This document shows positions 47,691 through 63,664 of a stretch of DNA of 64,000 bases, one piece after another (within the stretch, counting starts at the first letter, position 1; every line of letters starts with the position of its first letter). Source of the stretch: Deltaproteobacteria bacterium. Its GTDB lineage: Bacteria; Desulfobacterota; Binatia; UTPRO1. The notes under the pieces were generated by a model. It did not search any database. It was not told the origin of the DNA and saw only the letters and a program-made list of their open reading frames with translations. The stretch lies in contig JADLHM010000136.1 of NCBI GenBank assembly GCA_020848745.1, positions 1 through 64,000 of the forward strand. Direction: 5' to 3'. Made by a program: the position numbers and the translations under genes.

Positions 47691-50381
47691 CTAGACTCGC
47701 CTGGCGGCGCCGCGGCCGCTCGGCGGCGCGACCGGCAGGTCCCAGAGCGCGGCGACCTCGGGGTCGTCCTCGTCCCAGACCCGCCGGTGCAGCTCGGCGA
47801 CCAGGTCCGGGTGGCGGAGCAACTGCTTGCGCTGCTCCGGGACGATCTCGTCGGGCCCCTTGTGCACGAGCTCGTCGAGCAGCGCGGCGTACGCGGCGCG
47901 GATGCTGGCGCGGAGCATCCGGCCGGGACGGAGGAGCGCCTTGTGGAGGGCGTTCACGTACGGATCGACCGCCGTCGCGACGAACACGTCTTCGCGGGCG
48001 GGCGGCATCGCGGCGAGGCGCGCCGCGACCGCGCGGATCTCGGGTGGCGGGTCGGTCTCCTCGGGCGTCAGGAACAAGCCGAGGCCGCGGGCGCGCGTCC
48101 CGGCCGCCACGCGGCTCGCGTGCACCGAGACCGGGATCGCCAGCACGAGCGCGCCGATGATCGGGAGGATCCACCAGAAGTAGGCGGGATTCAGCCAGAA
48201 GAGCATCACGCCCCACGCGCTCGCGAACACGGTGTCGAAGCCGTGGGCGCGGACCGCGTCGCGCCACGACGTCTCGGCGTCCTCGCGCGTCTGCGAGCGC
48301 CACACGACCGTCCGCCCGATGAGGTTGGTGAAGACGAAACGGCTGTGGAAGGCCATGCGGATCGGCGCGAGGAGGCTCGAGAGCAGCACGTCGAGCACGA
48401 CGCTCGCGAGCAGGCGCAGCACGCCCCCGAAGGCGCGCGCCTGGCCGTGCACGGTGATCAGCAGCACGCTCAAGATCTTCGGGACGAAGAGGATCATGCC
48501 GGTCACGGCCAGCAGCGCGAGCGCCCAGTTCGGACGCCAGACCGGCCACTCGGGAAAGAGGCTCGGCCCGGACGGGAAGTAGTCGGGCTCGAAGAACACG
48601 TTGGCGACCGCCTCCCAGGTGGAGAGCAGGAGGAACGTTGCCCACAGGAGCGCCGACACGTACGAGAGCGCACCGTTCAGGAAGAGCGTGCGGTGGGCGC
48701 CGAAGAGCCCCTCGGTGAAGAGGAGGCGCAGGTGCTGGAGGTTCCCCTGGCACCAGCGGCGGTCGCGGCTCATCTCCTCGAGCAGGGTCGACGGCACCTC
48801 CTCCCACGAGCCCCCGAGGTCGTAGGCGAGCCAGGTGGTCCATCCGGCCCGCCCCATGAGCGCCGCCTCGACGAAATCGTGGCTCAGGATCTCGCCGCCG
48901 AGCGGCGGCTTCCCGGGCAAGCGCGGCAGCGCGCAGTGCTTGATGAAGGGCGCGGTCCGGATGATGGCGTTGTGGCCCCAGTACTGCCCGTCGCCGAGCT
49001 GCCAGAAGTGCAGCCCCGCCGAGAACATCGGCCCGTACACGCGGCTCGAGAACTGCTGCACGCGCGCGAAGAGCGAGCGTCGCTGGACCGCGATCGGCAC
49101 GGTCTGGATGACGCCGACGTCGGCGTGGCGCCGCATGAGCTCGACGAGGCGGACGAGGGTCGCGCCCTGCATCACGCTGTCGGCGTCGAGCATCACCATG
49201 AACGGGTAGCGCGCGCCCCAGCGCCGGCAGAAGTCGGCGACGTTGCCGCTCTTGCGCCGTAGCCGCACCCGGCGGCGGCGGTAGAAGATGCGATCGAAGC
49301 CGTCAACGTCGCGCGCCCACGCCGCCCACGCCTCTTCCTCGCGGACGATCGTCTGCGCATCGGCGGTGTCGCTCAGGACGAAGAAGTGGAACTGGCCGGC
49401 GGCACCGATCTTCGCGAGCGACTCCTCGATCGCGCGCAGGCCGGCGAAGACGCGATCCACCGGCTCGTTGCAGATCGGCATGACGATCGCGGTCGGACGC
49501 CCCTCGGCGTCGGGATCGGGCGCCGCTCCCGGAAACGGCACGCTCGCGCCGGGCGCGCGCGTGATCGCGAAGCGGTCGCCGCGCACGAGGCACCAGAAGC
49601 CCATGAGGGCCGCCCAGAACCCGATCGAGATCCACCCGAAGAGGACGCCGAACACGACCACGATCGCGAGCTCGAGCGAAGTGCCGCCGCCGCGCGGCAG
49701 TACGTTCACCATGAAGCCGCTCGCAACGACGGTCGGCAGCAGCACCAGGGTCGCGAGCAGCAGCCGGCGGCGGAAGGCGACCCGCGTCCACGCGAGCGCG
49801 CGCCGGCGCCGCCGAAACGCCTTGCGCGCCTCGGCGCCCGAGGCGCGCCCCCGCAGCCGGCCGAACCACCGATAGAGGAGGCGGCGCTCCATCGGCTCGG
49901 GCGCCATCGACGTGCGCTGGAGCGGCGGCATCGAGTCGAAGCGGCCGCCGCTGACCGGCGCCGTGCTGAGCGCGCCGCGCGCGCCGATGGCCGGCCCGTC
50001 GCCCGCCGGCGCCGCCACGACGCCCGTCCCGAGCCGCCACGCGAGAAAGGGCTCCATGCGTCCGTCCCACGGCCGCGGCGGCACCGGGTGCCGTTGCAGG
50101 AGGAGCGCCCGGAGCTGGGCCAGCGTCACGTCGACCGCGTCGTTGCCCTCCTCCCATGGCTCGCTCATCGCGAGCGCGACGGCCTCGCGCGCGAGGCCGT
50201 CGCGCTCGCCCGCGGCGACGCCGAGCGCCACGAGGTACGCCACCGCCCGCACGTGCGCGAGACGCCAGTCCTGGATGAGGCGGTGCCCCGGACCTTCGAG
50301 GCGCAGGCGGCCGGAATCGGTCGGGCCGTCGACGGTCACGCGCGGGGCCGGGTCGGCCAGTGGCTCGAGACGTTTGTCCAT
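47691..50381 (-). CDS. opgH: Glucans biosynthesis glucosyltransferase OpgH (MdoH)
   Basis: Inner-membrane GT2 synthase of 896 residues that polymerises the beta-1,2-linked glucose backbone of osmoregulated periplasmic glucans from UDP-glucose and exports it. A cytosolic N-terminal region (1-215) precedes the first helices (LLLATLVLLPTVVASGFMV). The catalytic loop shows AIVMPICNEPVDRVFAGL, MLDADSVMQG (DxD), ILSHDFVEAALMGRAGW and DRRWCQGNLQHLRLL (the QxxRW-type motif as RRWCQGN). C-terminal helices follow. It lies 27 bases downstream of the GH1 gene on the same strand, so the two probably share a transcript. opgG is 10 kb away on the other strand. Confidence 0.94.
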   Translation of the reverse strand: MDKRLEPLADPAPRVTVDGPTDSGRLRLEGPGHRLIQDWRLAHVRAVAYLVALGVAAGERDGLAREAVALAMSEPWEEGNDAVDVTLAQLRALLLQRHPVPPRPWDGRMEPFLAWRLGTGVVAAPAGDGPAIGARGALSTAPVSGGRFDSMPPLQRTSMAPEPMERRLLYRWFGRLRGRASGAEARKAFRRRRRALAWTRVAFRRRLLLATLVLLPTVVASGFMVNVLPRGGGTSLELAIVVVFGVLFGWISIGFWAALMGFWCLVRGDRFAITRAPGASVPFPGAAPDPDAEGRPTAIVMPICNEPVDRVFAGLRAIEESLAKIGAAGQFHFFVLSDTADAQTIVREEEAWAAWARDVDGFDRIFYRRRRVRLRRKSGNVADFCRRWGARYPFMVMLDADSVMQGATLVRLVELMRRHADVGVIQTVPIAVQRRSLFARVQQFSSRVYGPMFSAGLHFWQLGDGQYWGHNAIIRTAPFIKHCALPRLPGKPPLGGEILSHDFVEAALMGRAGWTTWLAYDLGGSWEEVPSTLLEEMSRDRRWCQGNLQHLRLLFTEGLFGAHRTLFLNGALSYVSALLWATFLLLSTWEAVANVFFEPDYFPSGPSLFPEWPVWRPNWALALLAVTGMILFVPKILSVLLITVHGQARAFGGVLRLLASVVLDVLLSSLLAPIRMAFHSRFVFTNLIGRTVVWRSQTREDAETSWRDAVRAHGFDTVFASAWGVMLFWLNPAYFWWILPIIGALVLAIPVSVHASRVAAGTRARGLGLFLTPEETDPPPEIRAVAARLAAMPPAREDVFVATAVDPYVNALHKALLRPGRMLRASIRAAYAALLDELVHKGPDEIVPEQRKQLLRHPDLVAELHRRVWDEDDPEVAALWDLPVAPPSGRGAARRV

Positions 50382-50408: not shown

Positions 50409-51605
50409 TCATGGCACGGGAAGCAGGCGATTGGCACGCGCCACCGATCCGAGCCAATGGGCGCTCGGCCGGAGGGTCCGGCGCTGGGTCGCCCGGTCGA
50501 CCTCCACGATTCCGAACCGCGGGGCGTACCCGAAGGCCCATTCGAAGTTGTCGAGCAGGCTCCAATACAGGTAGCCGAGGACCGGGAGCCCGTCGCCGAG
50601 GCACGCGAGCACGCCGCGGAGCGCCTGCGCGACGTACTCGATGCGCTCGCGGTCCTCGTCGACCGCGACGCCGTTCTCGGTCACGACGATCGGCGCGCCG
50701 GTGAGCGCGTGCGCGCGCCGGATGCAGGCTTCGAGCGCGTCGGGGTAGAACTCCCACCCCATCTGGGTCAGGCGCGCGTCCGGCGCGGGCCGCCGCGGCC
50801 CGTCCGGACCGACCAGCGTCCGCGTGTAGGTCTGGACCCCGAGGAAGTCGTCGCCACGCGCGGCTTCCAGAAACACGTCCTCCATGTCGCGACGCTCCCG
50901 GTCGCGGAGCGCCTCGCCGCCGTCGAGCGCCTGCCAGTCCTGCATCGCGAGCGTGAGCCCGATCGGCGCCCGACCGGGGCCGCTCCGGATCGCGTCGACC
51001 GCGAGCCCGTGCGCGGCGATCAGCACCGCGTTGGCGCGCAGGCGGAGCTCGGGGTCGCGCGCGCCGGGCGGAAAGAGCCCCCAGCGATGTCCGACGTCGG
51101 CCACGATGTTCGGCTCGTTGATCGTGCAGACGCGGCTCACGACGTCGCCGAGCCGCGCCGCCGCACGCGCCGCGAAGCGCGCGAAGAGGTCGGCGGTCGC
51201 GGGCTCCGTCCAGCCGCCGCGCGCCGTCACCCAGCGCGGCGTCGTGAAATGATGGAAGGTGACGATCGGCGCGAGGCCGCGCACCAGGCACGCGTCGCAC
51301 ACGCGCCGGTAGTGGTCGAGCGCGGCCGCGGAGAACTCGCCGTCTTCCGGCTCGATCCGGCTCCACTCGAGCGAGAAGCGATACGCGCCGAACCCGAGCC
51401 CGGCGAGCAGGTCGAGGTCGTCGGGATAGCGGTGATAGTGATCGCAGGCGTCGCCGCTCGGCTCGCGGCAGGGCGTGTCGATCCCGTGCTCCCAGGCCCA
51501 CCAGTCGTTGTTCCAGTTGCCGCCCTCCACCTGGTGGGCGGCGGTGGCGGCGCCCCAGACGAAGCCGTCGGGAAAGGCGTCGCCGGAGCTTGGACGCTCG
51601 GTCAC
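50409..51605 (-). CDS. GH1 family beta-glucosidase
   Basis: Cytoplasmic glycoside hydrolase of 398 residues without a signal peptide. It opens FPDGFVWGAATAAHQVEGGNWNNDWWAWE, the GH1 substrate-binding segment. The acid/base Glu164 is in TINEPN and the nucleophile Glu310 in VVTENG; YLYWSLLDNFEWAFGY closes the aglycone site. GH1 enzymes cleave terminal beta-glucosides and some act on sophorose-type beta-1,2 disaccharides. The GTG at 51605 is the only start that keeps the usual N terminus. It sits upstream of opgH and is divergent from the GH144-like gene (112 bases between starts). Confidence 0.92.
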   Translation of the reverse strand: MTERPSSGDAFPDGFVWGAATAAHQVEGGNWNNDWWAWEHGIDTPCREPSGDACDHYHRYPDDLDLLAGLGFGAYRFSLEWSRIEPEDGEFSAAALDHYRRVCDACLVRGLAPIVTFHHFTTPRWVTARGGWTEPATADLFARFAARAAARLGDVVSRVCTINEPNIVADVGHRWGLFPPGARDPELRLRANAVLIAAHGLAVDAIRSGPGRAPIGLTLAMQDWQALDGGEALRDRERRDMEDVFLEAARGDDFLGVQTYTRTLVGPDGPRRPAPDARLTQMGWEFYPDALEACIRRAHALTGAPIVVTENGVAVDEDRERIEYVAQALRGVLACLGDGLPVLGYLYWSLLDNFEWAFGYAPRFGIVEVDRATQRRTLRPSAHWLGSVARANRLLPVP

Positions 51606-51717: not shown

Positions 51718-53298
51718 ATGCCTTCGCGGCCCGCGCGCACTCCGGCCACGCCGCTGCTCGCGGTCCTCGTGGCGAGCGTCCTGATGGCCGCGACCCCCGA
51801 GGGGAGCCGCGCCGACGCGCCGGCGGCGGAGCCGCCCCGGCCCGCCTGCCCCCTCGAGTCCAGCCTGCGCGTCGAAAGCGCCACGCCCGTCTGGGAGGAC
51901 GATCCGGTCCCGACGCCGAAGAAGAAGGCGTGGGAGGACGCTCTCGGCGGGCAGCTCGCCGCCCGCCCCATCGTGCGGGCGCGCATGAAGGGCTGGCCGA
52001 CCGCCGCCCTCGTCGACCGCGCGGCCCTGCCCCACGACGACCGCGCCTTCCTCGGGCGGCTCGCGCGCGACACCTGGCGCGGGCTCGACGCGTTCACCGA
52101 CCGTGAGAACGGCCTCCCGGTCGACCACGTGCGCATCGAGGACGACGGCGACGGCGCGCCCGGCGGCGTCGTCGGCGACTACACCAACGTCACCAACGTC
52201 GGGATGCACCTGATCGCGGTGGTCGCGGCGCGGGCGCTCGACCTCGTCCCGGAGCGCGACGCGATCGCCGCGATCGAGCGCACCCTCGACACCCTCGACC
52301 GCCTCGAGACGCACGCGGGCTTCTTCTTCAACTACTACGACACGACGTCGCTCGAGCGGACCAGCAACTTCGTCTCGTTCGTCGACTCGTCGTGGCTGAT
52401 CGCCGGGCTCATGGTCGCGCGCGCCGCGTTCCCGATCCTCGCCGCGCGCACCACGCCGCTCATCGACCGGATGGACTACCGCTTCTTCTACGACGAGAAG
52501 CTCGGCCTGCTGTCGCACGGCTACTTCGTCCACCGGCGCGCGCGCTCCCGCTACCACTACGGGGTGCTCTACACCGAGGCGCGGCTCGGCGCGCTGCTCG
52601 CGGTCGGCAAGGGCGAGGTTCCCGAAGCGACGTGGTTCCGCATGGTGCGGACCTACCCCGCCGACTGCCTCGGCCAGACCCAGACCCCGGTCGCCGCCAC
52701 GCGCAAGGTCGTCCGCGGCCACGAGGTCTGGGGCGGCTGGTACGAGTGGCAGGGCGAGCGCTACGTGCCGTCCTGGGGCGGCAGCATGTTCGAGGCGCTC
52801 ATGCCGCTGCTCGTCGTCGACGAGCAGCGCGCCGCCCCGACGAGTCTCGGCCCGAACGACGTCGCGCACGCCGTCGTGCAGCGCCGCTACGCGCTCGAGA
52901 CGCTCGGGTATCCCGTCTGGGGCCTGTCGCCGGCGGCGATCCCGAGCGACGGCTATCGCGAGTTCGGCGTGCGCCCCCTCGGCGCGCGCGGCTACGGCGC
53001 GGGCATCGTGACCCCGCACGCGAGCGCGCTCGCTCTCGCCGTCACGCCGGTCGAGGCGACGGCCAACCTCCGCCGCCTCGCCGAACGCTACGACCTCTAC
53101 GGCGACTACGGGCTCTACGACGCCGTCGATCCCGCCAGCGGGAACGTCGCGCGCGCCTACCTCGCGCTCGACCAGGCGATGACGCTCGTGGCCATCGCCA
53201 ATCATCTCCGGGGCGGCGTCATTCCCGAGCTCTTCGCGACCGATCCGATCGCCAAGCGCGCCCTCGCGATCCTCGGCGACGAGCGCTTCTTCGAGTAG
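51718..53298 (+). CDS. Secreted PF10091/GH144-type predicted beta-1,2-glucanase
   Basis: Exported protein of 526 residues with a signal peptide (TPLLAVLVASVLMAATPEGSRADA). The (alpha/alpha)6 domain shows FFFNYYDTTSLERTSNFVSFVDSSWLIAGL, HYGVLYTEARLGALLAVGKGEVP and SWGGSMFEALMPLLVVDE, the signature blocks of the family often named 'glucoamylase' (PF10091). Characterised members in family GH144 are endo-beta-1,2-glucanases rather than true glucoamylases. In the neighbourhood of opgH and opgG a role in trimming periplasmic beta-1,2-glucan is the favoured inference. The ABC ATPase gene follows 11 bases later on the same strand. Confidence 0.82.
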   Translation: MPSRPARTPATPLLAVLVASVLMAATPEGSRADAPAAEPPRPACPLESSLRVESATPVWEDDPVPTPKKKAWEDALGGQLAARPIVRARMKGWPTAALVDRAALPHDDRAFLGRLARDTWRGLDAFTDRENGLPVDHVRIEDDGDGAPGGVVGDYTNVTNVGMHLIAVVAARALDLVPERDAIAAIERTLDTLDRLETHAGFFFNYYDTTSLERTSNFVSFVDSSWLIAGLMVARAAFPILAARTTPLIDRMDYRFFYDEKLGLLSHGYFVHRRARSRYHYGVLYTEARLGALLAVGKGEVPEATWFRMVRTYPADCLGQTQTPVAATRKVVRGHEVWGGWYEWQGERYVPSWGGSMFEALMPLLVVDEQRAAPTSLGPNDVAHAVVQRRYALETLGYPVWGLSPAAIPSDGYREFGVRPLGARGYGAGIVTPHASALALAVTPVEATANLRRLAERYDLYGDYGLYDAVDPASGNVARAYLALDQAMTLVAIANHLRGGVIPELFATDPIAKRALAILGDERFFE

Positions 53299-53309
53299 AA
53301 GACCTCGCG

Positions 53310-54455
53310 ATGGCTCGGGTCGCCCTCGTCCACCTCGGGAAGATCTATCCGACGGGCGCGCCGGGGCGCGACCCGAACGGCGTGCGGGCGCTCGACGACG
53401 TCACGCTCGAGGTCGCCGACGGCGAGCTCCTCGTACTGGTCGGCCCCTCGGGCTGCGGCAAGTCGACGGTGCTGCGTCTGGTCGCCGGCCTCGAAGCCGC
53501 GACGAGCGGTGAGATCCGCATCGGCGACGCCGTCGTGAACGATCTCCCGCCGCAGGCGCGGAACGTCGCCATGGTCTTCCAGGACTACGCGCTCTATCCG
53601 CACATGACCGTGCGGCGGAACCTCGAGTTCCCCCTCCGCATGCGCGGCACGGGACGCGCGGAGATCGCCCGCCGCGTGGAGACGGTCGCGGGCCAGCTCG
53701 ATCTCGCGGCCCTGCTGGATCGCCTGCCGAAGCAGCTCTCCGGCGGCCAGCGCCAGCGGGTCGCGATGGGGCGCGCGCTCGTGCGCGAGCCCGCCGTGTC
53801 GCTCCTCGACGAGCCGCTCTCGAATCTCGACGCCAAGCTCCGGGTCGAGGTGCGCGCGGAGATCGCCGCCCTCCAGGAGCGCACGCGCACGACCATGCTC
53901 TACGTGACGCACGATCAGGTCGAGGCGATGACGCTCGGCGAGCGGGTCGCCGTCCTGCACGCGGGCCGCCTCCAGCAGATCGCGACGCCGCGCGAGCTCT
54001 ACGCCCGGCCCGCGAGCGCGTTCGTCGCCGGCTTCATCGGGAACCCGCCGATGAACCTCCTGCCGGGGCGCCTCGCCGCGGACGGCGCCGGCGTGCGCGT
54101 TGCGGTCGCGGGCGGCACGCTGCGGGTCGCGCCGGAGGCGGTCGCGCACCGGCCGGCGGGCGGCGCCGCCGAGATCACCGTCGGCATCCGCCCCGAGGCG
54201 CTCGTGCGCGTCGACCCCGGCGCCGCGAACGCGCTCCGGCTCACGGTCGCGCACGTCGAGTGGCTCGGCCACGAGACGCTCGCGCACCTGCGGGCGACGG
54301 AGCCCCCGGGCGCCGGCCGCGACGAGGAGCGGGACGACGGCATGGTGGCGCGTCTTCCCGGCATGCACCAGCTCGCCCCCGGCGAGCCGCTCGCTCTCGG
54401 CGTCGACCCGGCGTCCGTCTACCTGTTCGACCGGAACGGACGCGCGCTCGGGTAG
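53310..54455 (+). CDS. Carbohydrate ABC transporter ATPase, MalK/UgpC/MsmK type
   Basis: ABC ATPase of 381 residues, family CUT1. Walker A GPSGCGKST (45-53), Q-loop FQDYALYPHMTV, signature LSGGQRQRVAMGRAL (143-157), Walker B VSLLDEPLSNLD and the H-loop TMLYVTHDQVEAMTL are complete. The C-terminal TOBE/OB domain (about 245-381) is the regulatory module of MalK-like subunits. It should energise the two permeases encoded at 57695-59415, although it is on the opposite strand and coupled to the GH144-type gene (11-base spacing). Confidence 0.93.
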   Translation: MARVALVHLGKIYPTGAPGRDPNGVRALDDVTLEVADGELLVLVGPSGCGKSTVLRLVAGLEAATSGEIRIGDAVVNDLPPQARNVAMVFQDYALYPHMTVRRNLEFPLRMRGTGRAEIARRVETVAGQLDLAALLDRLPKQLSGGQRQRVAMGRALVREPAVSLLDEPLSNLDAKLRVEVRAEIAALQERTRTTMLYVTHDQVEAMTLGERVAVLHAGRLQQIATPRELYARPASAFVAGFIGNPPMNLLPGRLAADGAGVRVAVAGGTLRVAPEAVAHRPAGGAAEITVGIRPEALVRVDPGAANALRLTVAHVEWLGHETLAHLRATEPPGAGRDEERDDGMVARLPGMHQLAPGEPLALGVDPASVYLFDRNGRALG

Positions 54456-54485: not shown

Positions 54486-57400
54486 CTAGGGCGCCATCTG
54501 TGCAGAGCTTCCCTGGAACTCCAGCCGCACGTCGGCGGGAAAGGCGCGGATCGTGACTTCCCGCTCACCGAAGCCTTCGACCGGCGTGCCGTTCACCGTG
54601 ACCCGCGCGAGCGGACCCGCGAGCGGCGGCTGCAGCACGATGCCGCCCGCCGGAACGGTCAGGTCGCCGTCGAGGTGGAGCACGAGCGCGCGCTCGCCGT
54701 CGGTCCCGAGCGTGTAGGAGAGCACGCCCCAGTAGGTCGGCAGGCGCTTCACGCCGACGCCGGGCGCGGCGAGCCAGTCCGACGGCACGCCGGCGGCGAG
54801 GACCAGCGCCTGGTCGCTCTCGCGCTCGTAGGCGAGCATCGTCCGGAGCGCGCGCACGTAGCTCGAGCCGACCCACGTGTGCGGCATGTCGCCGATGAAG
54901 CGCGGCGCGTTGGGGTCGTGCCAGACGATCTCGGCCCACTGGTTCCACGCCGCCGGCCGCTGGTCGCGGAGCAGCGCATCGAGGATGTCGTGGGCCCGCT
55001 GGCGGTGCCCGAGCCGCACCATGGCCTCGACGTTGCGGAGCTCGTAGGGGCTGTAGCCGCTGCTGGCGCCCCGCCCCTCGACGCGGTCCTCGACGGTCTC
55101 CCAGTAGCGCTCGAACGTGCGCTCGATCGCCGCGCGCGGCAGGAAGGGCGCGAGGTCGGCGATCGTGATCGCGATCGCGCTCGACGTGGGGTCGAAGTCG
55201 GCGAGCTCGACCGACGCCGGCAGGTAGTCGGTCGCGCGCGTCTCCATGACCCGCGTGATCGACGCGACGATGTCCGTCCGGAACGCGTCGCGAAGCGCCG
55301 CGAAGCGCGCGGCGCGCTCGCCGTCGCCGACGACCCGCGCCAGCTCGGCCGCGTCGGTGACGCCGCGGAGCGCGAAGAAGTCGTCCCAGTACGAGTGTAC
55401 CGGGTGCGAGCTGTACCCTTCGTGGCTGATCGACTCGGGGAGGAGGCCGAAGAACACCTGGCGTCCGGGCTCGCGGTACGCGTCGGTCGTGCGGGAGGCG
55501 CGCGCGTTCGCGATCCAGTCGACGGCGCGCGTGAGGACCGGCCAGAGCGCGTGCACGAAGCCGACGTCGCGCGTGAAGCGATAGTATTCGGCGATCGCGT
55601 AGATCAGCTCGCCGTTGCTGTCGTGTTCGGGGACCGGGTCGGGGCCGCGCCGGTCGACGCAGCACGGCACGCGGCCGTCCGGCAGCTGATACGACGCATA
55701 CCAGGCGAGGAACTGTCGCACCTCCTCGACGTGCCCGGTCTTCAACAGCACGTCGGACGTGAGGGCGCCGTCGCGGATCCACGAGCGCGCGTAGGTGCGG
55801 GAGCCCGGCTGGATCGCGGGGCCGTCGCGATTGATCAGGATGTGCGCGATGGTCGTGCGGAGCGTGTCAACGAGGCCGCGCGTCTCCTCCGGCAGCGTCA
55901 CGTCGACGCGGCTCGTCTGCTCGATCCATTCGCGCGCCACACGGGCGCGCTCCGCGTCGAGGTCCGCGAGCGACATCGTCGCGGCACGCGCGATCGTCGG
56001 AGCGGGATCGTGGAACGGAACCGCGAGGGCGACGACGCCCGGCTTGCCCGGCTCGACCGTCAGCCGATACGCGAGTGCGCCCGACGCCCACCCGAGCGGG
56101 TCGGCGACGTTGGTGTCGGGCGGCACCTTGCCCTTGAGGAGATACGGACCGACGAGCCCCTGCTCGAAGGTCGCGCCACCGAAGCGGTCGGGCGTCGTCA
56201 GCGACACGACGGCGCGCTCGCCGTTCACCCACACGGTGCGGCCGTCGAGCGTCAGGCTGCGGATCGGGGTGACGCCCCCCACCATGTTCAACGACTGCCA
56301 CGGCGGCAGGACCTGGAACGGCCGGAGCGCGAGGAAGAGATCGACGTCGCGGAGGCGGTCACCGAGGTTCTCGAGATCGTAGCGCAGGTACAGCACCGAC
56401 GCGCCCGCGGGCCCGCCGACGAACGTCTCGATGCGCAGCCGCAGGCCGCCCTGCTGCCACGTGACCAACGGGATCGGCAGCGTGCGGTCCGCGAGGGCCT
56501 GCGTCGGCTGAGCGTCGCTCCAGGTCACGAGGGCGCCGTCGACGTAGAGGAACGGCTCGATCGTGAAGGCGCCCTTGTCGACCTCGACGATGCCCTCCTC
56601 GCTGACGAGCGCCTCCCGGTCGTCGTCGAGCGCCCCGACGACGGTCCAGTACGATTGCCGGCCCGTGAAGTACTTCGGATAGGTGCCGCGGAAGGCGCCG
56701 GCGGCGACGGCCTCGAAGAACTGGTTCGGCGAGGTCGAGAAGGCGATCGGCTGCACCGCCAGGCTGCGGATCTCGTAGCCCTTGCCCTGGCTGCTCTGCA
56801 CGAGCGCGAGCCGGACGTACCGCGACTCGCCGTCCGGCAGGTAGACGTAGCTCCGCCCGCCGCTCCCCGCCGTGCTGGCGTAGGCGACGGTCCACGTCTC
56901 GGCGTCGTCGGAGACCTCGACGCGATAGCTCGTCGCGTAGTGCTCGGGGTCCCAGTCGACGACGAGGCCGCCGTACTCGCGGGGTTTCGCGAAGTCGAGC
57001 TGGAGCCATTGCTCGGCGGCGAGCTCGCCGCTCCGCCAGCTCGTCTGCGGATCCTGGTCGAGCACGAGGCGCGGCTCGTGACCCGGCGCGAACGTCGACG
57101 CCGTCACGACGGGCGGGAGGTCGGCGCGGCTCGCCGTCGCCCGCTCCTCGAGGCGGAGGTCGTCGATCCAGACCGAGCCCTTTCCGCCCTCGCCGGTCGT
57201 GATCGCGATCTCGACGAACGCGACCTTCTTCGGCGACGCGGGCCGCTTCTGTCCCCAGGCGTACTCGAGGCGCGACTTCTTCACCACCACGTGCTGCCAG
57301 TCCTTCTGGAAGACGTAGTCGCGCTGCACGCGCCACCAGACGTTGTCGTTGGTGGGCTCGATGAGCTTGAGCTCGAGGGTGTTCGGCGGGGCGTCGCCGC

Positions 57401-57698
57401 GGACGTCGAAGGTGAACGCGAAGTTCCCGGGCAGCGTGATCGGAAACGCCTTGCGCGCGATGACGAACCCGCCGCCGCCGCGGAAGTCGAAGTCGAGACG
57501 CATGGCGTTCCCGGCGCGGCCGGCGTCCTGGGCGATCTCGAGGCTCGCGCCGGGCGACGCCTGGGCGCTCCAGCCCTGCACGCTCTCGAACTCGTCGAGC
57601 ACCTGGGTGGCCGCCCGCACCGTCCCGGGCACGAGGTACGCGAGCGCGAGCATCGCCCCGACCGCCCACCTCCGCATGCCCGCTCGCGTCTCCCTCAC
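54486..57698 (-). CDS. F5/8 type C plus six-hairpin glycosidase-like exported protein
   Basis: Large secreted protein (1070 residues from GTG at 57698; an ATG at 57677 gives a cleaner signal peptide RRWAVGAMLALAYLVPGTVRA). A carbohydrate-binding-like beta domain comes first (33-190: LDEFESVQGWSAQ, GSVWIDDLRLEE). A discoidin/F5-8 type C domain follows (about 198-320: PQTSWRSGELAAEQWLQLDF). A beta-sandwich and an (alpha/alpha)6 domain complete it, with SWIRDGALTSDVLLKTGHVEEVRQFLAWYA and NGELIYAIAEYYRFTRD. This plan resembles GH15/GH63-like six-hairpin enzymes, but no family is assigned and catalytic acids cannot be named safely. The GTG overlaps the permease stop (GTGA). Confidence 0.75.
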   Translation of the reverse strand: MRETRAGMRRWAVGAMLALAYLVPGTVRAATQVLDEFESVQGWSAQASPGASLEIAQDAGRAGNAMRLDFDFRGGGGFVIARKAFPITLPGNFAFTFDVRGDAPPNTLELKLIEPTNDNVWWRVQRDYVFQKDWQHVVVKKSRLEYAWGQKRPASPKKVAFVEIAITTGEGGKGSVWIDDLRLEERATASRADLPPVVTASTFAPGHEPRLVLDQDPQTSWRSGELAAEQWLQLDFAKPREYGGLVVDWDPEHYATSYRVEVSDDAETWTVAYASTAGSGGRSYVYLPDGESRYVRLALVQSSQGKGYEIRSLAVQPIAFSTSPNQFFEAVAAGAFRGTYPKYFTGRQSYWTVVGALDDDREALVSEEGIVEVDKGAFTIEPFLYVDGALVTWSDAQPTQALADRTLPIPLVTWQQGGLRLRIETFVGGPAGASVLYLRYDLENLGDRLRDVDLFLALRPFQVLPPWQSLNMVGGVTPIRSLTLDGRTVWVNGERAVVSLTTPDRFGGATFEQGLVGPYLLKGKVPPDTNVADPLGWASGALAYRLTVEPGKPGVVALAVPFHDPAPTIARAATMSLADLDAERARVAREWIEQTSRVDVTLPEETRGLVDTLRTTIAHILINRDGPAIQPGSRTYARSWIRDGALTSDVLLKTGHVEEVRQFLAWYASYQLPDGRVPCCVDRRGPDPVPEHDSNGELIYAIAEYYRFTRDVGFVHALWPVLTRAVDWIANARASRTTDAYREPGRQVFFGLLPESISHEGYSSHPVHSYWDDFFALRGVTDAAELARVVGDGERAARFAALRDAFRTDIVASITRVMETRATDYLPASVELADFDPTSSAIAITIADLAPFLPRAAIERTFERYWETVEDRVEGRGASSGYSPYELRNVEAMVRLGHRQRAHDILDALLRDQRPAAWNQWAEIVWHDPNAPRFIGDMPHTWVGSSYVRALRTMLAYERESDQALVLAAGVPSDWLAAPGVGVKRLPTYWGVLSYTLGTDGERALVLHLDGDLTVPAGGIVLQPPLAGPLARVTVNGTPVEGFGEREVTIRAFPADVRLEFQGSSAQMAP

Positions 57699-58516
57699 TG
57701 TTTGACGCTCCCGCTCGCGATGCCCTCGATGTACGAGCGCTGGAGCGCCAGGAACACCCCGATCACGGGTAGCACGGTGAGGACGGCTCCGGCCATCATC
57801 AATTCGGTGTCCTGCACGTGCTCGCCGAGGAGGTTCGCGAGCGCGACCGGGAGGGTCTGGAGACGGCTGTCGCTCAGCACCACCAGGGGCCAGAGGAAGT
57901 CGTTCCAGGTCCCCATGAACGTGAAGAGGGCGAGCGTCACCAGGACGGGCCGGCAGAGCGGCACCACCACCGACCAGAAGACGCGGAGCTCCCCCGCGCC
58001 ATCGACGCGGGCGGCGTCGAGGAGGCTCTGCGGTATCCCGAGCGCGTATTGCCGTACGAGGAAGATCCCGAAGATGCTCGCCAGCCCCGGCACGACGACG
58101 CCGAGGTAGGTGTTCACGAGCCCGAGGCCGCGCAGCATGAGGAAGAGCGGCAGCATGCCGAGCTGCCCCGGGATCACGAGCGCCAGGAGCAGCACGGCGA
58201 AGATGCGGTCGCGACCCGGGAACCGGAAGCGCGCGAATGCGTAGCCGGCGAGCGCGTTCAGCGTCACCGACACGACCGTCGTGACGATCGCGATCCCGAG
58301 GCTGTTCGCGAAGGCGCGCGCGAGGTCGAGCCGCGTGAAGAGCTCGCGGTAGTGCTCGAGCGTCGGCGCGCTCGGGATCCAGCGCGGCGGCACCGTGCTC
58401 GCCTCTCCGGTCGGCATGAGCGACGCCGACGCCATCCAGAGGAGCGGCAGCACGGTGAGGAGCGCGCCCGCGGCGAGCGCCGCGTGCACGACGACGGCCG
58501 CGCCGCGCCGGCTCAC
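57695..58516 (-). CDS. Carbohydrate ABC transporter permease, MalG type
   Basis: Inner-membrane permease of 273 residues with six helices. The EAA loop, contact point for the ATPase, is LDAARVDGAGELRVFWSVVVPLCRPVL. PRWIPSAPTLEHYRELF is a typical MalG-family periplasmic stretch. The GTG at 58516 overlaps the stop of the upstream permease (GTGA), and its own stop overlaps the start of the glycosidase gene. It forms the importer core with the next entry. Confidence 0.92.
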   Translation of the reverse strand: MSRRGAAVVVHAALAAGALLTVLPLLWMASASLMPTGEASTVPPRWIPSAPTLEHYRELFTRLDLARAFANSLGIAIVTTVVSVTLNALAGYAFARFRFPGRDRIFAVLLLALVIPGQLGMLPLFLMLRGLGLVNTYLGVVVPGLASIFGIFLVRQYALGIPQSLLDAARVDGAGELRVFWSVVVPLCRPVLVTLALFTFMGTWNDFLWPLVVLSDSRLQTLPVALANLLGEHVQDTELMMAGAVLTVLPVIGVFLALQRSYIEGIASGSVKQ

Positions 58517-59415
58517 GCGACCTCCGCCCGCGTCCCGAGCGCGCGCGCGACGAGGCTCGGCACCAGCATCGCGACGAAGAGCACGAACGCGATGGCCGCG
58601 GCGTAGCCCATGTTCCACCAGCGAAACCCCTCGAGGTACATCAGCAGCACGACCGAGAGCGTCGCGTGCGCCGGTCCGCCCTGGGTCATGACGTAGGGCT
58701 CGGCGAAGAGCTGGAGGTCGCCGATCAGCGTCATCACCGTCACGAAGACGAGCGTCGGACGGAGCGCGGGGAGCGTGACGTGGACGAAGCGCGCGAGTGC
58801 CGACGCTCCGTCGACGCGCGCCGCCTCGTACAGGCGCTCCGGGACGGCCTGGAGGCCCGCGACCAGGATCACCATGTTGAAGCCGAAGGTCTTCCAGATC
58901 GTCATGAGGACGATCGCGGGCATCGCGAAGCGCGGCTCTCCGAGCCAGTCGACGGGTCCGATGCCGAAGGGCGCGACGAGCGCGTTCAGGAGCCCGATGC
59001 GCGGGTGGAAGGCGTAGCGCCACACCACCGCCACCGCGACGAGCGTCGTCACCACCGGCAGGAAGAGCGCGACGCGGAACGCCGGCTTCCAGCGCGTGAG
59101 CGGCGCGCTCAGGAGGAGCGCCGCCCCGAACGAGACGGCGATCGAGAGCGGCGCCGCGACGACGACGAAATAGAGCGTGTTGCGGATCGCGGTCCGGAAG
59201 AGCGCGTCGCCGGCGAGGCGGGCATAGTTCCCGAGCCCGATCACCCGCAGATTGGCGCGGCTCGCGACCGCGTAGATGTCGAAGTCGGTGAAGCTGAGCG
59301 CGATCGACGCCGCGACCGGCACGAAGAAGAAGATCGCGATCGCCGCGAGCGCCGGCGCCGCGAAGAGGAGCCCCGGCGCGGCGCCCGCTGGCGCGCCGCG
59401 TACGGCGCACCTCAC
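58513..59415 (-). CDS. Carbohydrate ABC transporter permease, MalF/UgpA type
   Basis: Permease of 300 residues with six predicted helices, starting with LLFAAPALAAIAIFFFVPVAASIALSFTDFDI. The EAA loop YEAARVDGASALARFVHVTLPALRPTL marks it as the MalF-like partner. YVMTQGGPAHATLSVVLLMYLEGFRWWNMGYAAAIAFVLF is typical of CUT1 permeases. The GTG at 59415 overlaps the stop codon of the binding-protein gene, and the end overlaps the MalG-type gene. Confidence 0.92.
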   Translation of the reverse strand: MRCAVRGAPAGAAPGLLFAAPALAAIAIFFFVPVAASIALSFTDFDIYAVASRANLRVIGLGNYARLAGDALFRTAIRNTLYFVVVAAPLSIAVSFGAALLLSAPLTRWKPAFRVALFLPVVTTLVAVAVVWRYAFHPRIGLLNALVAPFGIGPVDWLGEPRFAMPAIVLMTIWKTFGFNMVILVAGLQAVPERLYEAARVDGASALARFVHVTLPALRPTLVFVTVMTLIGDLQLFAEPYVMTQGGPAHATLSVVLLMYLEGFRWWNMGYAAAIAFVLFVAMLVPSLVARALGTRAEVA

Positions 59416-60860
59416 GAGCGTCCCCCGCCCACCGGGTCGCCCGCGGGGCCGGGTCGCGCGCGCGCCGACGCATCACCGGCCGCCGCCGTACGGCCGCGCA
59501 CCGGGGCGGCCGCCGCACCGCGCGCGGCGGCGCGGTCGAGCATCCAGCGGCGCTTCTCGAGCATCGCGTCGACGTCGCGGTCGAGCGCGGTGAGCGCGTC
59601 GTCGAGCGCGACGGCGCCGCGCACGACGTCCTCGGCGTGCTCGGTGATCTTGGCAGCGATGCGCTCCCACTCGGGAACCGTCGGCGGCGCCTGGACGCGG
59701 GCGAGCTGCCGCCAGAAGGCGGCCGTCCGCGGCGCGTCCGCGAGGCCGGCCTCGCGCCACGCGCTCGGCCGCGCCGGCAGGTCGCCGGTGAGGCGCCAGA
59801 ACGCGAGCTGCTGCGCCGGCTCGGCGAGAAACGCGATCCAGCGCCAGGCGAGCTCGGCGTGCGGGCTCGTGCGGACGACCGCGAGGCTCGCCCCACCGGC
59901 GAGCGACACGCCGGGCCCCTCGCCCGCGAAGGTCGGGAGCGGCGCCGTCGCCCACGCGTCGGCGAGCGCCGGCAGGCGGCGGGTCATCTCGCCGAGGTTC
60001 CACGGGCCGCTGATGAGGATCGAGAACCACCCCGACGCGAAGTCCTGGTAGACGTTCGCCGACCGGGCGGCGCCGGCGCGGGGCGCGAGCCCGCGCTGGA
60101 AGAGCGATCGATAGAAGTCGAGGGCGGCGCGGAACGCCGGGCTCCGGAAGTCGCCGAAGCGGTCTCCGTCGCGCAGCAGGGTCGCGCCCCGCTGCATGGC
60201 GAAGATCACCGGCGGCTCCCACTCGGTCATCGGCAGGAGCACGGCATAGCGCTCGCCGCCGCGCGCGAGCCGCTCCATGGCTGCGACCCAGCCGTCCCAG
60301 GTCGCGGGCGGCGCGTCGACGCCCGCCGCCCGCAGCAGATCGCGGCGATAGAAGAGGACGCGCGTGTCGACGTACCAGGGTACGCCGAAGCGCTCGCCGT
60401 CGATCGCGGTCGCGGCGACGACGCCCGGGAACTCGTCGCTACCCGCGGCGAGGTCCGCAGCGACCGACGCGCGGGCGTCATCGCGCGCCGCGAGCGCGTC
60501 ATCGCGCACCGCGAGCGCATCCTCGACCGGCGCCAGCGCCCCGAGCGCCGCGAGCTCCGCGAGCCACGTGTTCCCGACCTGCACGACGTCGGGCATCGCG
60601 CCGCCGACGTAGGCCGTGAGGAGCTTCTCGTGCGCGGCGCTCCAGGGAATCTGCTGCACCCGGACGCGCGCCCCGGGGTGGCGCCGCTCGAACTCCGGCA
60701 CGAGCCGCTGCACGACTTCACCCTCGCGGCCCATCGCCCAGAACTCGAGCACGTCCGCATCGCCGCCGCGCCGGCAGCCGGCGATCACGCCTGCCGCGAC
60801 GATCCCCGCCATGAGGGCGGCCCAGGTGGGAATGCCGCCACGGTCCGCGCGCGGTCGCAT
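59412..60860 (-). CDS. ABC transporter sugar-binding lipoprotein
   Basis: Extracellular solute-binding protein family 1 member of 482 residues. The signal ends in lipobox VIAGC (Cys29). The mature part starts with VLEFWAMGREGEVVQRLVPEFERRHPGARVRV and has GAMPDVVQVGNTWLAELAALGAL, GVPWYVDTRVLFYRRDLLRAAGV and WFSILISGPWNLGEM, all typical of CUT1 sugar receptors. The C-terminal 60 residues are Arg/Ala-rich and longer than usual. The ATG at 60860 has GGAGG upstream. It heads an operon with both permeases and the glycosidase, and is divergent from opgG. Confidence 0.92.
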   Translation of the reverse strand: MRPRADRGGIPTWAALMAGIVAAGVIAGCRRGGDADVLEFWAMGREGEVVQRLVPEFERRHPGARVRVQQIPWSAAHEKLLTAYVGGAMPDVVQVGNTWLAELAALGALAPVEDALAVRDDALAARDDARASVAADLAAGSDEFPGVVAATAIDGERFGVPWYVDTRVLFYRRDLLRAAGVDAPPATWDGWVAAMERLARGGERYAVLLPMTEWEPPVIFAMQRGATLLRDGDRFGDFRSPAFRAALDFYRSLFQRGLAPRAGAARSANVYQDFASGWFSILISGPWNLGEMTRRLPALADAWATAPLPTFAGEGPGVSLAGGASLAVVRTSPHAELAWRWIAFLAEPAQQLAFWRLTGDLPARPSAWREAGLADAPRTAAFWRQLARVQAPPTVPEWERIAAKITEHAEDVVRGAVALDDALTALDRDVDAMLEKRRWMLDRAAARGAAAAPVRGRTAAAGDASARARPGPAGDPVGGGRS

Positions 60861-60988: not shown

Positions 60989-62566
60989 GTGTCCGCCGAC
61001 AGATCCGCGACGGCCCCCGCCCGCCGTCGTCGCGCCGCCGCGACGACCGCGCTCGTGTTCTTGACGCTCGTGACGACGCCCGCGCTCGCCACGCGCGCGC
61101 CGAAGGCCTCCCCGAAGGCCTCCCCGCCGCCGACCTTCGGGTTCGACAACGTCGCCGGCAAGGCGAAGCAGCTCGCGGCCGAGCCGTTCAAGGCGCCGCC
61201 GCAGGTCCCTGAGTGGCTCGGAAAGATCAACTACGACCAGTGGCGCGATATCCGCTTCCGGACCGACCAGACGCTCTGGCGCGAGCCCGCCGGACCGTTC
61301 CAGGTGCAGTTCTTCCATCCCGGCCTCTTCTACGATCGTACGGTGGCCGTGAACGTCGTCACCGCGAACAAGTCGAAGCCCCTCACCTTCTCGCCGAGCC
61401 AGTTCGACTACGGGCGCAACGATTTCGCGAGCCGCGTGCCGCAGAGCCTCGGCTACGCGGGCCTGCGCCTGCACGCGCCGTTCAAGACGCCGAAATACTA
61501 CGACGAGGTGATCGTGTTCCTCGGCGCCACGTACTTCCGCGCGGTCGGCCGCGACCAGGTCTTCGGCCTCTCGGCGCGCGGCATCGCGATCGACACCGGC
61601 CTCTCGTCGGGCGAGGAGTTCCCCTACTTCCGGGAGTTCTGGCTCGAGACGCCGACCGGCAAGGACCCCAAGTCGGCCGTCGTCTACGCCCTCCTCGACA
61701 GCCCGAGCCTGACCGGCGCCTACAAGTTCACGATCACGCCGGGCGAGAAGACGGTGGTGGAGACCCAGGGCCGCCTCTACCTTCGCAAGGCGCCGCAGAA
61801 GATCGGGTTCGCGCCGCTCACCTCGATGTTCTTCCACGGTGAGAACACGACCCGGTCCTTCAACGACTTCCGTCCCGAGGTGCACGACTCGGACGGCCTC
61901 CTCATCTCGAGCGGCAACGGCGAGTGGCTGTGGCGGCCGCTCGACAACCCGGTGAAGCTCGAGATCAGCTCGTTCCGGACGCCGGCGCTCCGCGGCTTCG
62001 GCCTCGTCCAGCGCGACCGCGACTTCCGGAGCTACGAGGACCTCGAGACGCGCCCCGACCTCCGGCCGAGCACCTGGGTCGTGCCCTCCGGCGACTGGGG
62101 CAACGGCCACGTCGAGCTGATCGAGATCCCCACCAAGTCCGACGCGAACGACAACGTCGTCGCGATGTGGGTGCCCGACCAGCAGCCGAAGGTCGGGACG
62201 CCGTACGACTTCGCCTACACGCTCTCGTGGTTCGGCGAGGACGCCGGGCTGCCGCCGCACGGCCGCGTCGCGGCCACGCGGCGCGACGACTTCGAAGGCA
62301 CGAAGCGCTTCGTCGTCGACTTCGCCGGCAAGCTCCTCGAGGACGTGCCGGGCGACCAGATCCTGCGCGGCGACGTGACGGTCGCGAGCGGCGACGACGC
62401 GGCCGAGATCGTCGATCAGCACGTCGTGAAGAACCCGGTGACCGGCGGCTGGCGCCTCACCTTCCGCCTGCGTCCGAAGACGAGCGGGCCGATCGAGCTG
62501 CGCGCCTATCTCGACAAGGCGAGCGAGACCCTCACCGAGACCTGGTCGTATCTGCTGCGGGAATAG
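60989..62566 (+). CDS. opgG: Glucans biosynthesis protein OpgG/OpgD
   Basis: Periplasmic protein of 525 residues with a signal region (AAATTALVFLTLVTTPALA). It shows FQVQFFHPGLFYDRTVAVNVV, GYAGLRLHAPFKTPKYYDEVIVFLGATYFRAVG, GLSARGIAIDTG, EEFPYFREFWLE and DSDGLLISSGNGEWLWRPLDNP, conserved along the OpgG/OpgD family. In E. coli the homologues are needed for periplasmic glucan production and have been shown to be endo-beta-1,2-glucanases (family GH186). The C-terminal Ig-like domain begins about residue 400. The GTG start has TAGGAG upstream. It is split from opgH by the importer genes, unlike the E. coli opgGH operon. Confidence 0.93.
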   Translation: MSADRSATAPARRRRAAATTALVFLTLVTTPALATRAPKASPKASPPPTFGFDNVAGKAKQLAAEPFKAPPQVPEWLGKINYDQWRDIRFRTDQTLWREPAGPFQVQFFHPGLFYDRTVAVNVVTANKSKPLTFSPSQFDYGRNDFASRVPQSLGYAGLRLHAPFKTPKYYDEVIVFLGATYFRAVGRDQVFGLSARGIAIDTGLSSGEEFPYFREFWLETPTGKDPKSAVVYALLDSPSLTGAYKFTITPGEKTVVETQGRLYLRKAPQKIGFAPLTSMFFHGENTTRSFNDFRPEVHDSDGLLISSGNGEWLWRPLDNPVKLEISSFRTPALRGFGLVQRDRDFRSYEDLETRPDLRPSTWVVPSGDWGNGHVELIEIPTKSDANDNVVAMWVPDQQPKVGTPYDFAYTLSWFGEDAGLPPHGRVAATRRDDFEGTKRFVVDFAGKLLEDVPGDQILRGDVTVASGDDAAEIVDQHVVKNPVTGGWRLTFRLRPKTSGPIELRAYLDKASETLTETWSYLLRE

Positions 62567-62581
62567 CGCGAGGAGGATTCC

Positions 62582-63664
62582 ATGAAGTACGCCCAGCACA
62601 ATCCGCTCCCGATCCCCGACATCGGTCCCCTCGAGCCGGTCGAGGTCTCGATGACGTCCATCTTCGACTGGGAGTACGCCCTCAAGCGCGAGAACCTGCT
62701 CGCGCTGTACGAGAAGGGCAAAGCCAGCACCTGGAACGCGACCGACCTCGATTGGTCGGCCGACGTGAACCTCGAGAAGATCCAGCGCGACTACATGGGC
62801 ATGGGGTCGCAGGACGTCTTCAACCAGATGCTGAACCCGCCCCGGCCGCTCGATCAGCAGGAAGCGATCGACCTGAATCTCAACATCAACGCCTGGATGC
62901 TCTCGCAGTTCCTGCACGGCGAGCAGGGGGCGTTGCTCGCCACCGCCAAGATCGTGCAGGGCGTGCCGTGGGAGGAAGCGAAGTGGTACGCGGCCAATCA
63001 GGTCGCCGACGAGGCGCGCCACGTCGAGGTCTATCACCGCTACCTCACCGAGAAGCTCGGGATCTCGTTCGGAGTGAACCGCCACCTCCGCACGCTCCTC
63101 GACGAGATCATCTCCGACTCGCGCTGGGACATGACCTACCTCGGCATGCAGATCATGGTGGAAGGTCTCGCGCTCGCGGCCTTCGGCATGATGCGCCTGC
63201 AGTGGCCGGACGAGCCGCTCATCCAGGACATCACCACGCGCATCATGGGCGACGAGTCGCGCCACGTCGCCTTCGGCGTGCTCTCGCTCGAGCACCTCTA
63301 CGCCGGGGAGCTCGGCGCAACGGAGATGAAGGAGCGCGAGGACTTCGTGATCGAGGCGACGCACCTCATGCGCGACCGCCTGCTCATGGAGGACGTCTAC
63401 GAGCGCATGGGGTTCGACGTGAAGACGTGGGTCGAGTGGTCGATCAACACGCCGTTCATGTCCGGCTTCCGGCAGATGCTGTTCTCGAAGATCGTTCCCA
63501 ACCTGAAACGTCTCGGCCTCCTCACGCCGCGCGTCCGCGAGGCGTACGCCAAGCTCGATCTCCTGCGCTTCGAGCACATGAAGGACTCGAGCGAGGATCC
63601 GGAGGTCGCGTCGCCGGCGGAGCTCGTCGAGGCGCTCGCCAAGATCCGCGCCGGCACCGTCTGA
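62582..63664 (+). CDS. Ferritin-like diiron protein (R2-like oxygenase)
   Basis: All-helical protein of 360 residues. Candidate diiron ligands are Glu114 (HGEQGA), Glu144/His147 (DEARHVEVYHRY), Glu194 (VEGLALAAFG) and Glu225/His228 (DESRHVAFG), the E...ExxH...E...ExxH pattern of ribonucleotide-reductase-R2-like and related oxygenases. No radical-generating neighbour (NrdA-like) is present, so ribonucleotide reductase is unlikely; an N- or C-oxygenase or a lipid-modifying enzyme is possible. GAGGAGG lies upstream of the ATG. It is 15 bases after opgG and may be co-transcribed, though functional linkage is unknown. Confidence 0.82.
   Translation: MKYAQHNPLPIPDIGPLEPVEVSMTSIFDWEYALKRENLLALYEKGKASTWNATDLDWSADVNLEKIQRDYMGMGSQDVFNQMLNPPRPLDQQEAIDLNLNINAWMLSQFLHGEQGALLATAKIVQGVPWEEAKWYAANQVADEARHVEVYHRYLTEKLGISFGVNRHLRTLLDEIISDSRWDMTYLGMQIMVEGLALAAFGMMRLQWPDEPLIQDITTRIMGDESRHVAFGVLSLEHLYAGELGATEMKEREDFVIEATHLMRDRLLMEDVYERMGFDVKTWVEWSINTPFMSGFRQMLFSKIVPNLKRLGLLTPRVREAYAKLDLLRFEHMKDSSEDPEVASPAELVEALAKIRAGTV

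What the first reader, a model, noticed from the sequence alone, without database searches (positions are those of the whole stretch)
54486..57698. F5/8-type six-hairpin protein translationally coupled to sugar permeases
The binding protein, MalF-type, MalG-type and glycosidase genes overlap successively by GTGA, so the glycosidase is made with the importer. Its domain chain (carbohydrate-binding-like, F5/8 type C, beta-sandwich, (alpha/alpha)6) does not point to one characterised family. It could supply the imported sugar and may be a new activity.
Basis: partly seen in the sequence, partly recalled or inferred. Interest (0 to 1): 0.6.

Follow-up and report, generated by a model that had tools for sequence, protein, structure and literature searches.

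The report
Uncharacterised enzyme for bacterial beta-1,2-glucans
A large secreted sugar-cutting enzyme, not assigned to any described family, sits in a conserved operon with a sugar importer and other enzymes that make or break down beta-1,2-glucan (a sugar polymer of bacteria), which points to its likely substrate and makes its activity testable.

Summary
In detail: a 1070-aa gene on the minus strand (57698..54486) follows binding-protein, MalF and MalG genes through three 4-bp GTGA overlaps. Its chain is signal peptide, CBM11-like domain, F5/8 type C (CBM32-like) domain, supersandwich, (alpha/alpha)6 barrel, C-terminal beta domain (model pLDDT 91). It passes no curated catalytic-family cut-off. 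Its nearest folds and profiles are GH15, and two strictly invariant glutamates (E760, E923) lie in the a5-a6 and a11-a12 loops that hold the GH15 acid and base.

New here is the context. The locus encodes OpgH, OpgG (GH186), a stand-alone GH189-like protein, a GH1 with the residues of the beta-1,2-specific SGR_2426, and a Lin1841-like binding protein. The family is large (593+ matches). Of 89 sampled loci, 67 carry GH144, GH94/SOGP, GH35, OpgG or GH189-like genes. A cytosolic clade sits instead beside an SbmA-like transporter and often SOGP; the genome's second copy is one of these, next to its only SOGP gene.

Best reading: an uncharacterised GH15-like hydrolase family of beta-1,2-glucan utilisation. 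The bond cleaved is unknown. My leading guess (about 0.3) is the alpha-1,6 closure of alpha-1,6-cyclised beta-1,2-glucans; beta-1,2 cleavage is about as likely.

The parts
54486..57698 (-). Six-hairpin glycosidase (GHx), 1070 aa, GTG start, stop 54486-54488
   Evidence: homologues
57612..57698 (-). Residues 1-29: signal-peptide-like segment (MRRWAVGAMLALAYLVPGTVRA)
   Evidence: hydropathy scan of the family; no dedicated signal-peptide program was available
57138..57611 (-). Residues 30-187: CBM11-like jelly roll
   Evidence: model pLDDT 92.6; CtCBM11 Z 19.2, 159 residues, 3.2 A
56748..57122 (-). Residues 193-317: F5/8 type C (CBM32-like) domain
   Evidence: PF00754 E 5.6e-17; chitosanase/glucanase CBM32 Z 19.0, 1.7 A
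55899..56678 (-). Residues 341-600: beta-supersandwich domain
   Evidence: DSSP of model; GH15 and GH94 alignments start at about residue 347
54810..55898 (-). Residues 601-963: (alpha/alpha)6 catalytic barrel
   Evidence: twelve helices in the model; GH15 Z 28-31
54489..54809 (-). Residues 964-1070: C-terminal beta domain
55770..55772 (-). D643 of the W-I-R-D-G motif, putative -1 subsite
   Evidence: 73/73 invariant; same motif in GH15 alignment A5
55419..55421 (-). E760, proposed general acid, a5-a6 loop
   Evidence: 73/73 invariant; loop position; GH15 rule PMC12446779
54930..54932 (-). E923, proposed general base, a11-a12 loop
   Evidence: 73/73 invariant; EIVWHD aligns with GH15 EQVWD
57695..58516 (-). 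MalG-type permease
   Evidence: PF00528, UgpE/GlcU/MalG-like
58513..59415 (-). MalF-type permease
   Evidence: PF00528
59412..60860 (-). Solute-binding lipoprotein; best solved relatives X. citri 3uor and the Lin1841 sophorooligosaccharide-binding protein
53310..54455 (+). MalK/UgpC-type ATPase, convergent with GHx
51718..53298 (+). [quoted passage not shown] only PF10091 gene of the genome
   Evidence: 8wy1 E 1.4e-41
50409..51605 (-). GH1 beta-glucosidase of SGR_2426 type; Q229 and W291 equivalents kept
   Evidence: criteria from PMC12369401
47691..50381 (-). OpgH/MdoH glucan glucosyltransferase
   Evidence: NCBIfam NF003958 862.9 bits against cut-off 419
60989..62566 (+). OpgG (GH186), divergent from the binding-protein gene
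   Evidence: PF04349 E 7.4e-186; catalytic Asp pair kept

Best explanation
[quoted passage not shown] In this genome it is exported to the periplasm, holds the glucan with a CBM11-like and a CBM32-like domain, and cleaves it or its oligosaccharides; the products pass to the co-translated binding protein and permeases, with MalK, and are finished by the GH1 beta-1,2-glucosidase. Catalysis is most likely single-displacement (inverting), with E760 protonating the leaving oxygen and E923 activating water. Shown: anatomy, invariance and loop position of the two glutamates, GH15-like fold, operon conservation, beta-1,2-glucan context. Inferred: that it is a hydrolase, inversion, export, direction of the pathway. 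Guessed: the bond. Because all GH15 activities described in the paper read here are on alpha-glucosides, and the alpha-bond known from this glucan class is the alpha-1,6 closure of alpha-1,6-cyclised beta-1,2-glucans, opening that ring is my leading bond-level guess (about 0.3); beta-1,2 cleavage is about equally likely.
For: Model pLDDT 91.3; best folds GH15 dextran dextrinase Z 31.0 (561 residues, 3.6 A), bacterial glucoamylase 28.5, glucodextranase 28.1. Profile-profile: GH15 (oligosaccharide-amylase type) 97%, E 1e-10; second GH15 set 94%, 8.6e-8; GH94 91%, 1.2e-6; SOGP 64%; GH144 none. 30 of 31 members hit NCBIfam TIGR01577, far below its cut-off. E760 and E923 invariant in 73 of 73, in a5-a6 and a11-a12 loops, the GH15 positions (PMC12446779). 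Context: OpgH, OpgG, GH189-like, SGR_2426-type GH1, Lin1841-like binding protein; 67 of 89 related loci carry a beta-1,2-glucan marker gene, 35 carry SBP, MalF or MalG, 38 carry GH144-type genes, 47 carry GH94 or SOGP. The genome's only PF10091 gene lies beside this GHx, and its only SOGP gene about 2 kb from its other GHx.
Against: No activity data exist, and neighbourhood does not prove substrate. The specificity of the neighbouring GH94 cluster was not tested. The closest solved relative of the binding protein is X. citri MalE (3uor), not Lin1841, and its ligand is unverified here. The RD motif is shared by alpha-acting GH15 and beta-acting GH94, so the anomer cannot be read from sequence, and dextran dextrinase shows that a GH15 pair can also run a retaining reaction (PMC12446779). 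hhalign aligns the GH15 acid with E755, which is not invariant (57 of 73 Glu), rather than with E760. The local OpgG lacks the residues that mark alpha-1,6-cyclised glucan synthases.
Confidence: 0.7

Rival explanations
1. GHx cleaves the beta-1,2 backbone itself, as an exo- or endo-acting inverting hydrolase on beta-1,2-glucan or sophorooligosaccharides, with the GH15-like scaffold adapted to a beta-linkage as in GH94.
For: Beta-1,2-glucan context; GH94 and SOGP, which act on beta-glucans, share the fold (SOGP Z 26.5) and 91%/64% profile similarity; CBM11-like domain of a beta-glucan-binding type.
Against: GH144, GH189-like, GH1, GH3 and GH94/SOGP in the same loci already cover endo and exo beta-1,2 cleavage, so it would be redundant; the closest profiles are alpha-acting GH15.
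Confidence: 0.33
2. GHx removes branches or substituents of periplasmic glucans, for example the beta-1,6 glucose branches of E. coli-type glucans, so that GH144 enzymes and phosphorylases can proceed.
For: Natural OPGs carry beta-1,6 branches (PMC11842490); beta-1,2-glucanases of the SGL clan need substrate at subsites -3 and +2 (PMC12102758); GHx directly follows GH144 genes in Bacteroidota and Ignavibacteriota.
Against: No GH15-like enzyme is known to me to act on beta-1,6 bonds; no direct evidence.
Confidence: 0.12
3. GHx acts on an ordinary alpha-glucoside (trehalose, maltodextrin, isomaltose), and the importer is an ordinary maltose/trehalose system.
For: Weak hits to TIGR01577 and TreH1; binding protein closest to X. 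citri 3uor, deposited as a sugar-binding protein.
Against: Scores are hundreds of bits below cut-off (28.8 against 820.7); the loci hold beta-1,2-glucan enzymes, and no alpha-glucan enzyme family appeared among the recurrent neighbour clusters examined.
Confidence: 0.08
4. Retaining transglycosylase rather than hydrolase, remodelling glucans as dextran dextrinase does.
For: Top structural match is the retaining GH15-type dextran dextrinase; sequence alone does not separate the mechanisms (PMC12446779).
Against: The dextran-dextrinase marker Gly-Glu dyad in the a11-a12 loop is not seen in GHx: in alignment A1 the base is preceded by Ala or Pro (W[AP]E923).
Confidence: 0.07

Closest known systems
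GH15 (glucoamylase, glucodextranase, dextran dextrinase; clan GH-L)
   Same: Supersandwich plus (alpha/alpha)6 barrel, W-x-RD motif, invariant Glu in a5-a6 and a11-a12 loops, Z 28-31
   Different: Sequence far below curated GH15-type cut-offs, CBM11-like and CBM32-like N-terminal domains, beta-1,2-glucan loci instead of alpha-glucan loci
[quoted passage not shown]
   Same: Same superfold (Z 26), same pathway and loci
   Different: No member matches GH94 Pfam models; GHx keeps an invariant Glu in the loop that holds the base of GH15 hydrolases
SGL clan: GH144, GH162, GH189, GH192-194
   Same: (alpha/alpha)6 barrels, same loci, beta-1,2-glucan
   Different: No profile similarity to GH144 (E 0.11); GHx adds a supersandwich and binding domains
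Listeria innocua and Streptomyces griseus sophorooligosaccharide clusters (Lin1839-1841, SGR_2422-2427)
   Same: Sophorooligosaccharide-binding protein, permeases and a beta-glucosidase or phosphorylase
   Different: Their published gene descriptions name no GHx-type enzyme; there GH94, GH3, GH1 and GH193 do the cutting (PMC12369401)

Membership tests
GH15 | Supersandwich plus (alpha/alpha)6 catalytic barrel | tested here: met
GH15 | Two catalytic Glu in a5-a6 and a11-a12 loops | tested here: met
GH15 | Match to curated GH15-type sequence models over cut-off | tested here: not met
   TIGR01577 28.8 bits against 820.7; PF00723 not hit by any member scanned
GH15 | Inverting hydrolysis of alpha-glucosides | not testable with these tools
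   needs assay
GH94 | Match to PF06165 and PF17167 | tested here: not met
   no member of A3 matches
GH94 | Phosphate-dependent reaction | not testable with these tools
   needs assay; invariant E923 argues against
SGL clan (GH144/GH162/GH189/GH192-194) | Sequence-profile similarity to the clan | tested here: not met
   hhalign against GH144 only: prob 0.5%, E 0.11
SGL clan (GH144/GH162/GH189/GH192-194) | Conserved Glu/Tyr/Phe triad (XcSGL E239, Y367, F286) | not tested
   no residue-level structural superposition available
GH78 / GH133 (PF17389, PF06202) | Pfam match over gathering score | tested here: not met
   17.6 and 17.8 bits against 24.5 and 21 for the window protein; weak hits in 13 and 2 of 31 members
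Beta-1,2-glucan utilisation locus | Beta-1,2-glucan glucanase, phosphorylase or transferase genes adjacent | tested here: met
   67 of 89 loci; 51 of 62 loci of 12 kb or more
Beta-1,2-glucan utilisation locus | Sophorooligosaccharide-specific GH1 residues Gln229 and Trp291 | tested here: met
   kept in window GH1, Met171 replaced by Ile (with PMC12369401)
Beta-1,2-glucan utilisation locus | Binding protein that binds sophorooligosaccharides | tested here: inconclusive
   similar to Lin1841 (E 1.8e-59) but closer to X. citri 3uor (4.5e-105)

The most novel reading that the evidence does not exclude
GHx would be the first known enzyme that opens the single alpha-1,6 bond of alpha-1,6-cyclised beta-1,2-glucans (rings made for example by Xanthomonas, Ralstonia and Cereibacter). 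It would found a new GH family in which a GH15-type active site accepts a 2-O-substituted glucose, and it would supply the missing first step in the use or turnover of these rings.
Probability: 0.28. Interest if true: 0.78.

Novelty: new variant of a known kind. Interest (0 to 1): 0.55.

Why it matters
Five beta-1,2-glucan-related GH families (GH186, GH189, GH192-194) were described between 2023 and 2025, yet the enzyme that most consistently sits with the importer, or directly after the glucanase, in hundreds of genomes of many phyla has not been described in the papers found. If it opens or debranches natural periplasmic glucans, it explains how complex OPGs, several of them symbiosis or virulence factors, are recycled in the environment. 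It would also give a tool enzyme for analysing them.

Tried and rejected
Viral contigs hold no relative. GH144-clan membership was tested by profile comparison and rejected. GH15 membership by curated cut-off was rejected; the small glucodextranase-type GH15 set gave only 11% by hhalign. A profile search of PDB sequences with the catalytic domain gave nothing significant (best E 0.021), so the GH15 link rests on structure and profile-profile comparison. E755 was considered as acid and set aside because it varies. [quoted passage not shown] Paper searches found no description of the family, and 'GH195' turned up only in a diatom-mannan paper that was not opened. CAZy itself could not be searched. 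The eight 27%-identity relatives (L043-L050) have no recognisable beta-1,2-glucan neighbours and served as a small control.
Full report
Observation. The gene lies on the minus strand, 57698..54486, GTG start, 1070 aa. The 4-bp GTGA overlaps between binding protein, MalF, MalG and this gene are exact. I call the protein GHx. Seventy-three full-length homologues align with 45% mean column identity, so the gene is real. Among same-phylum genomes, L035 and L038 carry MalF and MalG directly upstream of GHx, L032 carries OpgH, SBP, MalF and MalG a few kb upstream, and these transporter proteins are 53-70% identical to those of the window.

Anatomy. A signal-peptide-like segment comes first. It is followed by a CBM11-like jelly roll (Z 19.2 to CtCBM11, a mixed-linkage beta-glucan binder), then an F5/8 type C domain (Pfam E 5.6e-17; Z 19.0 to chitosanase/glucanase CBM32). 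Then come a supersandwich, an (alpha/alpha)6 barrel and a C-terminal beta domain. The full-length model has mean pLDDT 91.3. The best solved structures are GH15 enzymes: dextran dextrinase Z 31.0 over 561 residues, bacterial glucoamylase 28.5, glucodextranase 28.1. GH65, GH63, GH78, GH116, invertases and GH94 follow closely, so the fold alone says only 'six-hairpin superfamily, nearest GH15'.

Catalytic residues. In 73 sequences the strictly invariant acidic residues of the catalytic part are D643, D682, E691, D693, D711, E760, D772, E923 and D937. Counting barrel helices in the model puts E760 in the a5-a6 loop, E923 in the a11-a12 loop and D643 at the start of a2, in a W-I-R-D-G motif. GH15 places its general acid and base in exactly those two loops (PMC12446779). 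hhalign ranks GH15 first (97%, E 1e-10, and 94%, E 8.6e-8), then GH94 (91%, 1.2e-6) and SOGP (64%); GH144 shows nothing. Around E923 the GHx motif EIVWHD...PHTW aligns with the GH15 base motif EQVWD...PLVW. At the acid, hhalign pairs the GH15 Glu with E755, which is not invariant; I favour E760 because it never varies. Thirty of 31 catalytic domains touch TIGR01577 but far below its cut-off, and none matches PF00723, PF17167 or PF06165. So it works like a GH15 enzyme, most likely inverting, but is not filed as GH15.

Local context. In the window the neighbours are OpgH (47691-50381), GH1 (50409-51605), a PF10091/DUF3131 protein (51718-53298), MalK (53310-54455), and OpgG (60989-62566), divergent from the binding protein. 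The GH1 is among the closest in the whole PDB to SGR_2426, the beta-1,2-glucan-associated GH1, and keeps its Gln229 and Trp291 (Met171 is Ile) (PMC12369401). [quoted passage not shown] The binding protein hits Lin1841, the Listeria sophorooligosaccharide-binding protein, at E 1.8e-59, second only to X. citri 3uor. OpgG keeps both catalytic Asp residues of GH186 but not the residues that mark alpha-1,6-cyclised glucan synthases (PMC11228985).

Context across genomes. A scan of genome contigs gave at least 593 relatives; 80 loci were kept. Unsupervised clustering of neighbouring ORFs in about 90 loci found, next to GHx: GH144-type genes in 38 loci, GH94 in 35, SOGP-type phosphorylase in 12, SBP/MalF/MalG in up to 26 each, MalK in 16, GH1 in 14, GH35 of the beta-1,2-glucosyltransferase type in 8, GH3 in 6 and OpgG in 3 (Pfam of representatives). 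Of 89 loci, 67 hold at least one beta-1,2-glucan marker (51 of 62 with 12 kb or more). Eight loci of 27%-identical relatives hold none. Loci were chosen by similarity and are not independent, and GH94 specificity was not tested, so these are descriptions, not probabilities.

Two settings. Fifteen GHx proteins in the tree lack a signal peptide; fourteen form one fully supported clade, L039 being the exception. Of the eighteen no-signal loci (some too broken for the tree), fourteen carried an SbmA/BacA-like ABC transporter in the clustering and two more by tblastn (L037, L040). Seven carry SOGP, and none carries the MalFG importer or GH144. The genome of the window has one GHx of each kind: this one, and a second (C55, L040) with an SbmA-like gene and the only SOGP gene of the genome. 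The same chemistry therefore seems to be run in the periplasm before import by the MalFGK-type importer, and in the cytosol before phosphorolysis.

Mechanism. The supported chain is: glucan made by OpgH, or taken from neighbours; trimmed by OpgG, GH144 or GH189-like enzymes; acted on by GHx; imported; finished by GH1 or phosphorylases. The bond GHx cuts is not shown. The loci already contain endo- and exo-beta-1,2 enzymes, and GH15 enzymes act on alpha-glucosides. The alpha-bond reported in this glucan class is the alpha-1,6 closure of rings made by Xanthomonas, Ralstonia and Cereibacter (PMC11842490). A GH15-like -1 subsite that recognises O4 and O6 (RD motif, from general knowledge) would tolerate a 2-O-substituted glucose, because O4 and O6 are free in beta-1,2-glucan. 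I put ring opening at about 0.3, beta-1,2 cleavage at about 0.33, debranching at 0.12. The overall role in beta-1,2-glucan metabolism with a GH15-like hydrolytic site I put at 0.7.

Novelty. The papers found on beta-1,2-glucan enzymes do not, in the parts read, mention such a protein. The published Ignavibacterium album cluster has GH94, GH144, GH35 and SBP genes, as do the loci here from relatives such as L096, L103, L116 and L122 in various combinations, where GHx sits among them. CAZy could not be searched, so a very recent family number is possible.

Noticed in passing
[quoted passage not shown] in the alignment the acid/base Glu (GSMFE) is kept and the nucleophile position is Asp, as in the Agrobacterium enzyme. 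With OpgH nearby it might cyclise or cut OpgH product.
   Followed up: partly
L040 8733-17525 (G000 C55); also L033, L036, L037, L079, L084, L113, L115: A second module: cytosolic GHx with an SbmA/BacA-like ABC transporter and, in seven loci, 1,2-beta-oligoglucan phosphorylase. This suggests that some SbmA-like transporters import beta-1,2-glucans.
   Followed up: partly
59412..60860 -: The binding protein is most similar to X. citri MalE (3uor), ahead of Lin1841; the X. citri protein may be a sophorooligosaccharide binder rather than a maltose or trehalose binder.
   Followed up: no
60989..62566 + and L132 (G000 C45): Two GH186 (OpgG/D) proteins with the catalytic Asp pair but Y, L/A and H/N at the W76, D343, R477 positions that define alpha-1,6-cyclised glucohexadecaose synthases.
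   Followed up: yes
L043-L050: A distant group (27-29% identity, about 750-1120 aa) of six-hairpin proteins; the seven scanned have no Pfam match, and the loci show no beta-1,2-glucan neighbours.
   Followed up: partly
L130 2290-8544: An Ignavibacteriae MAG holds tandem GHx copies, the second broken in two frames.
   Followed up: no
62582..63664 +: A ferritin-like, AurF/ribonucleotide-reductase-like diiron protein follows OpgG; its link to the locus is unknown.
   Followed up: no
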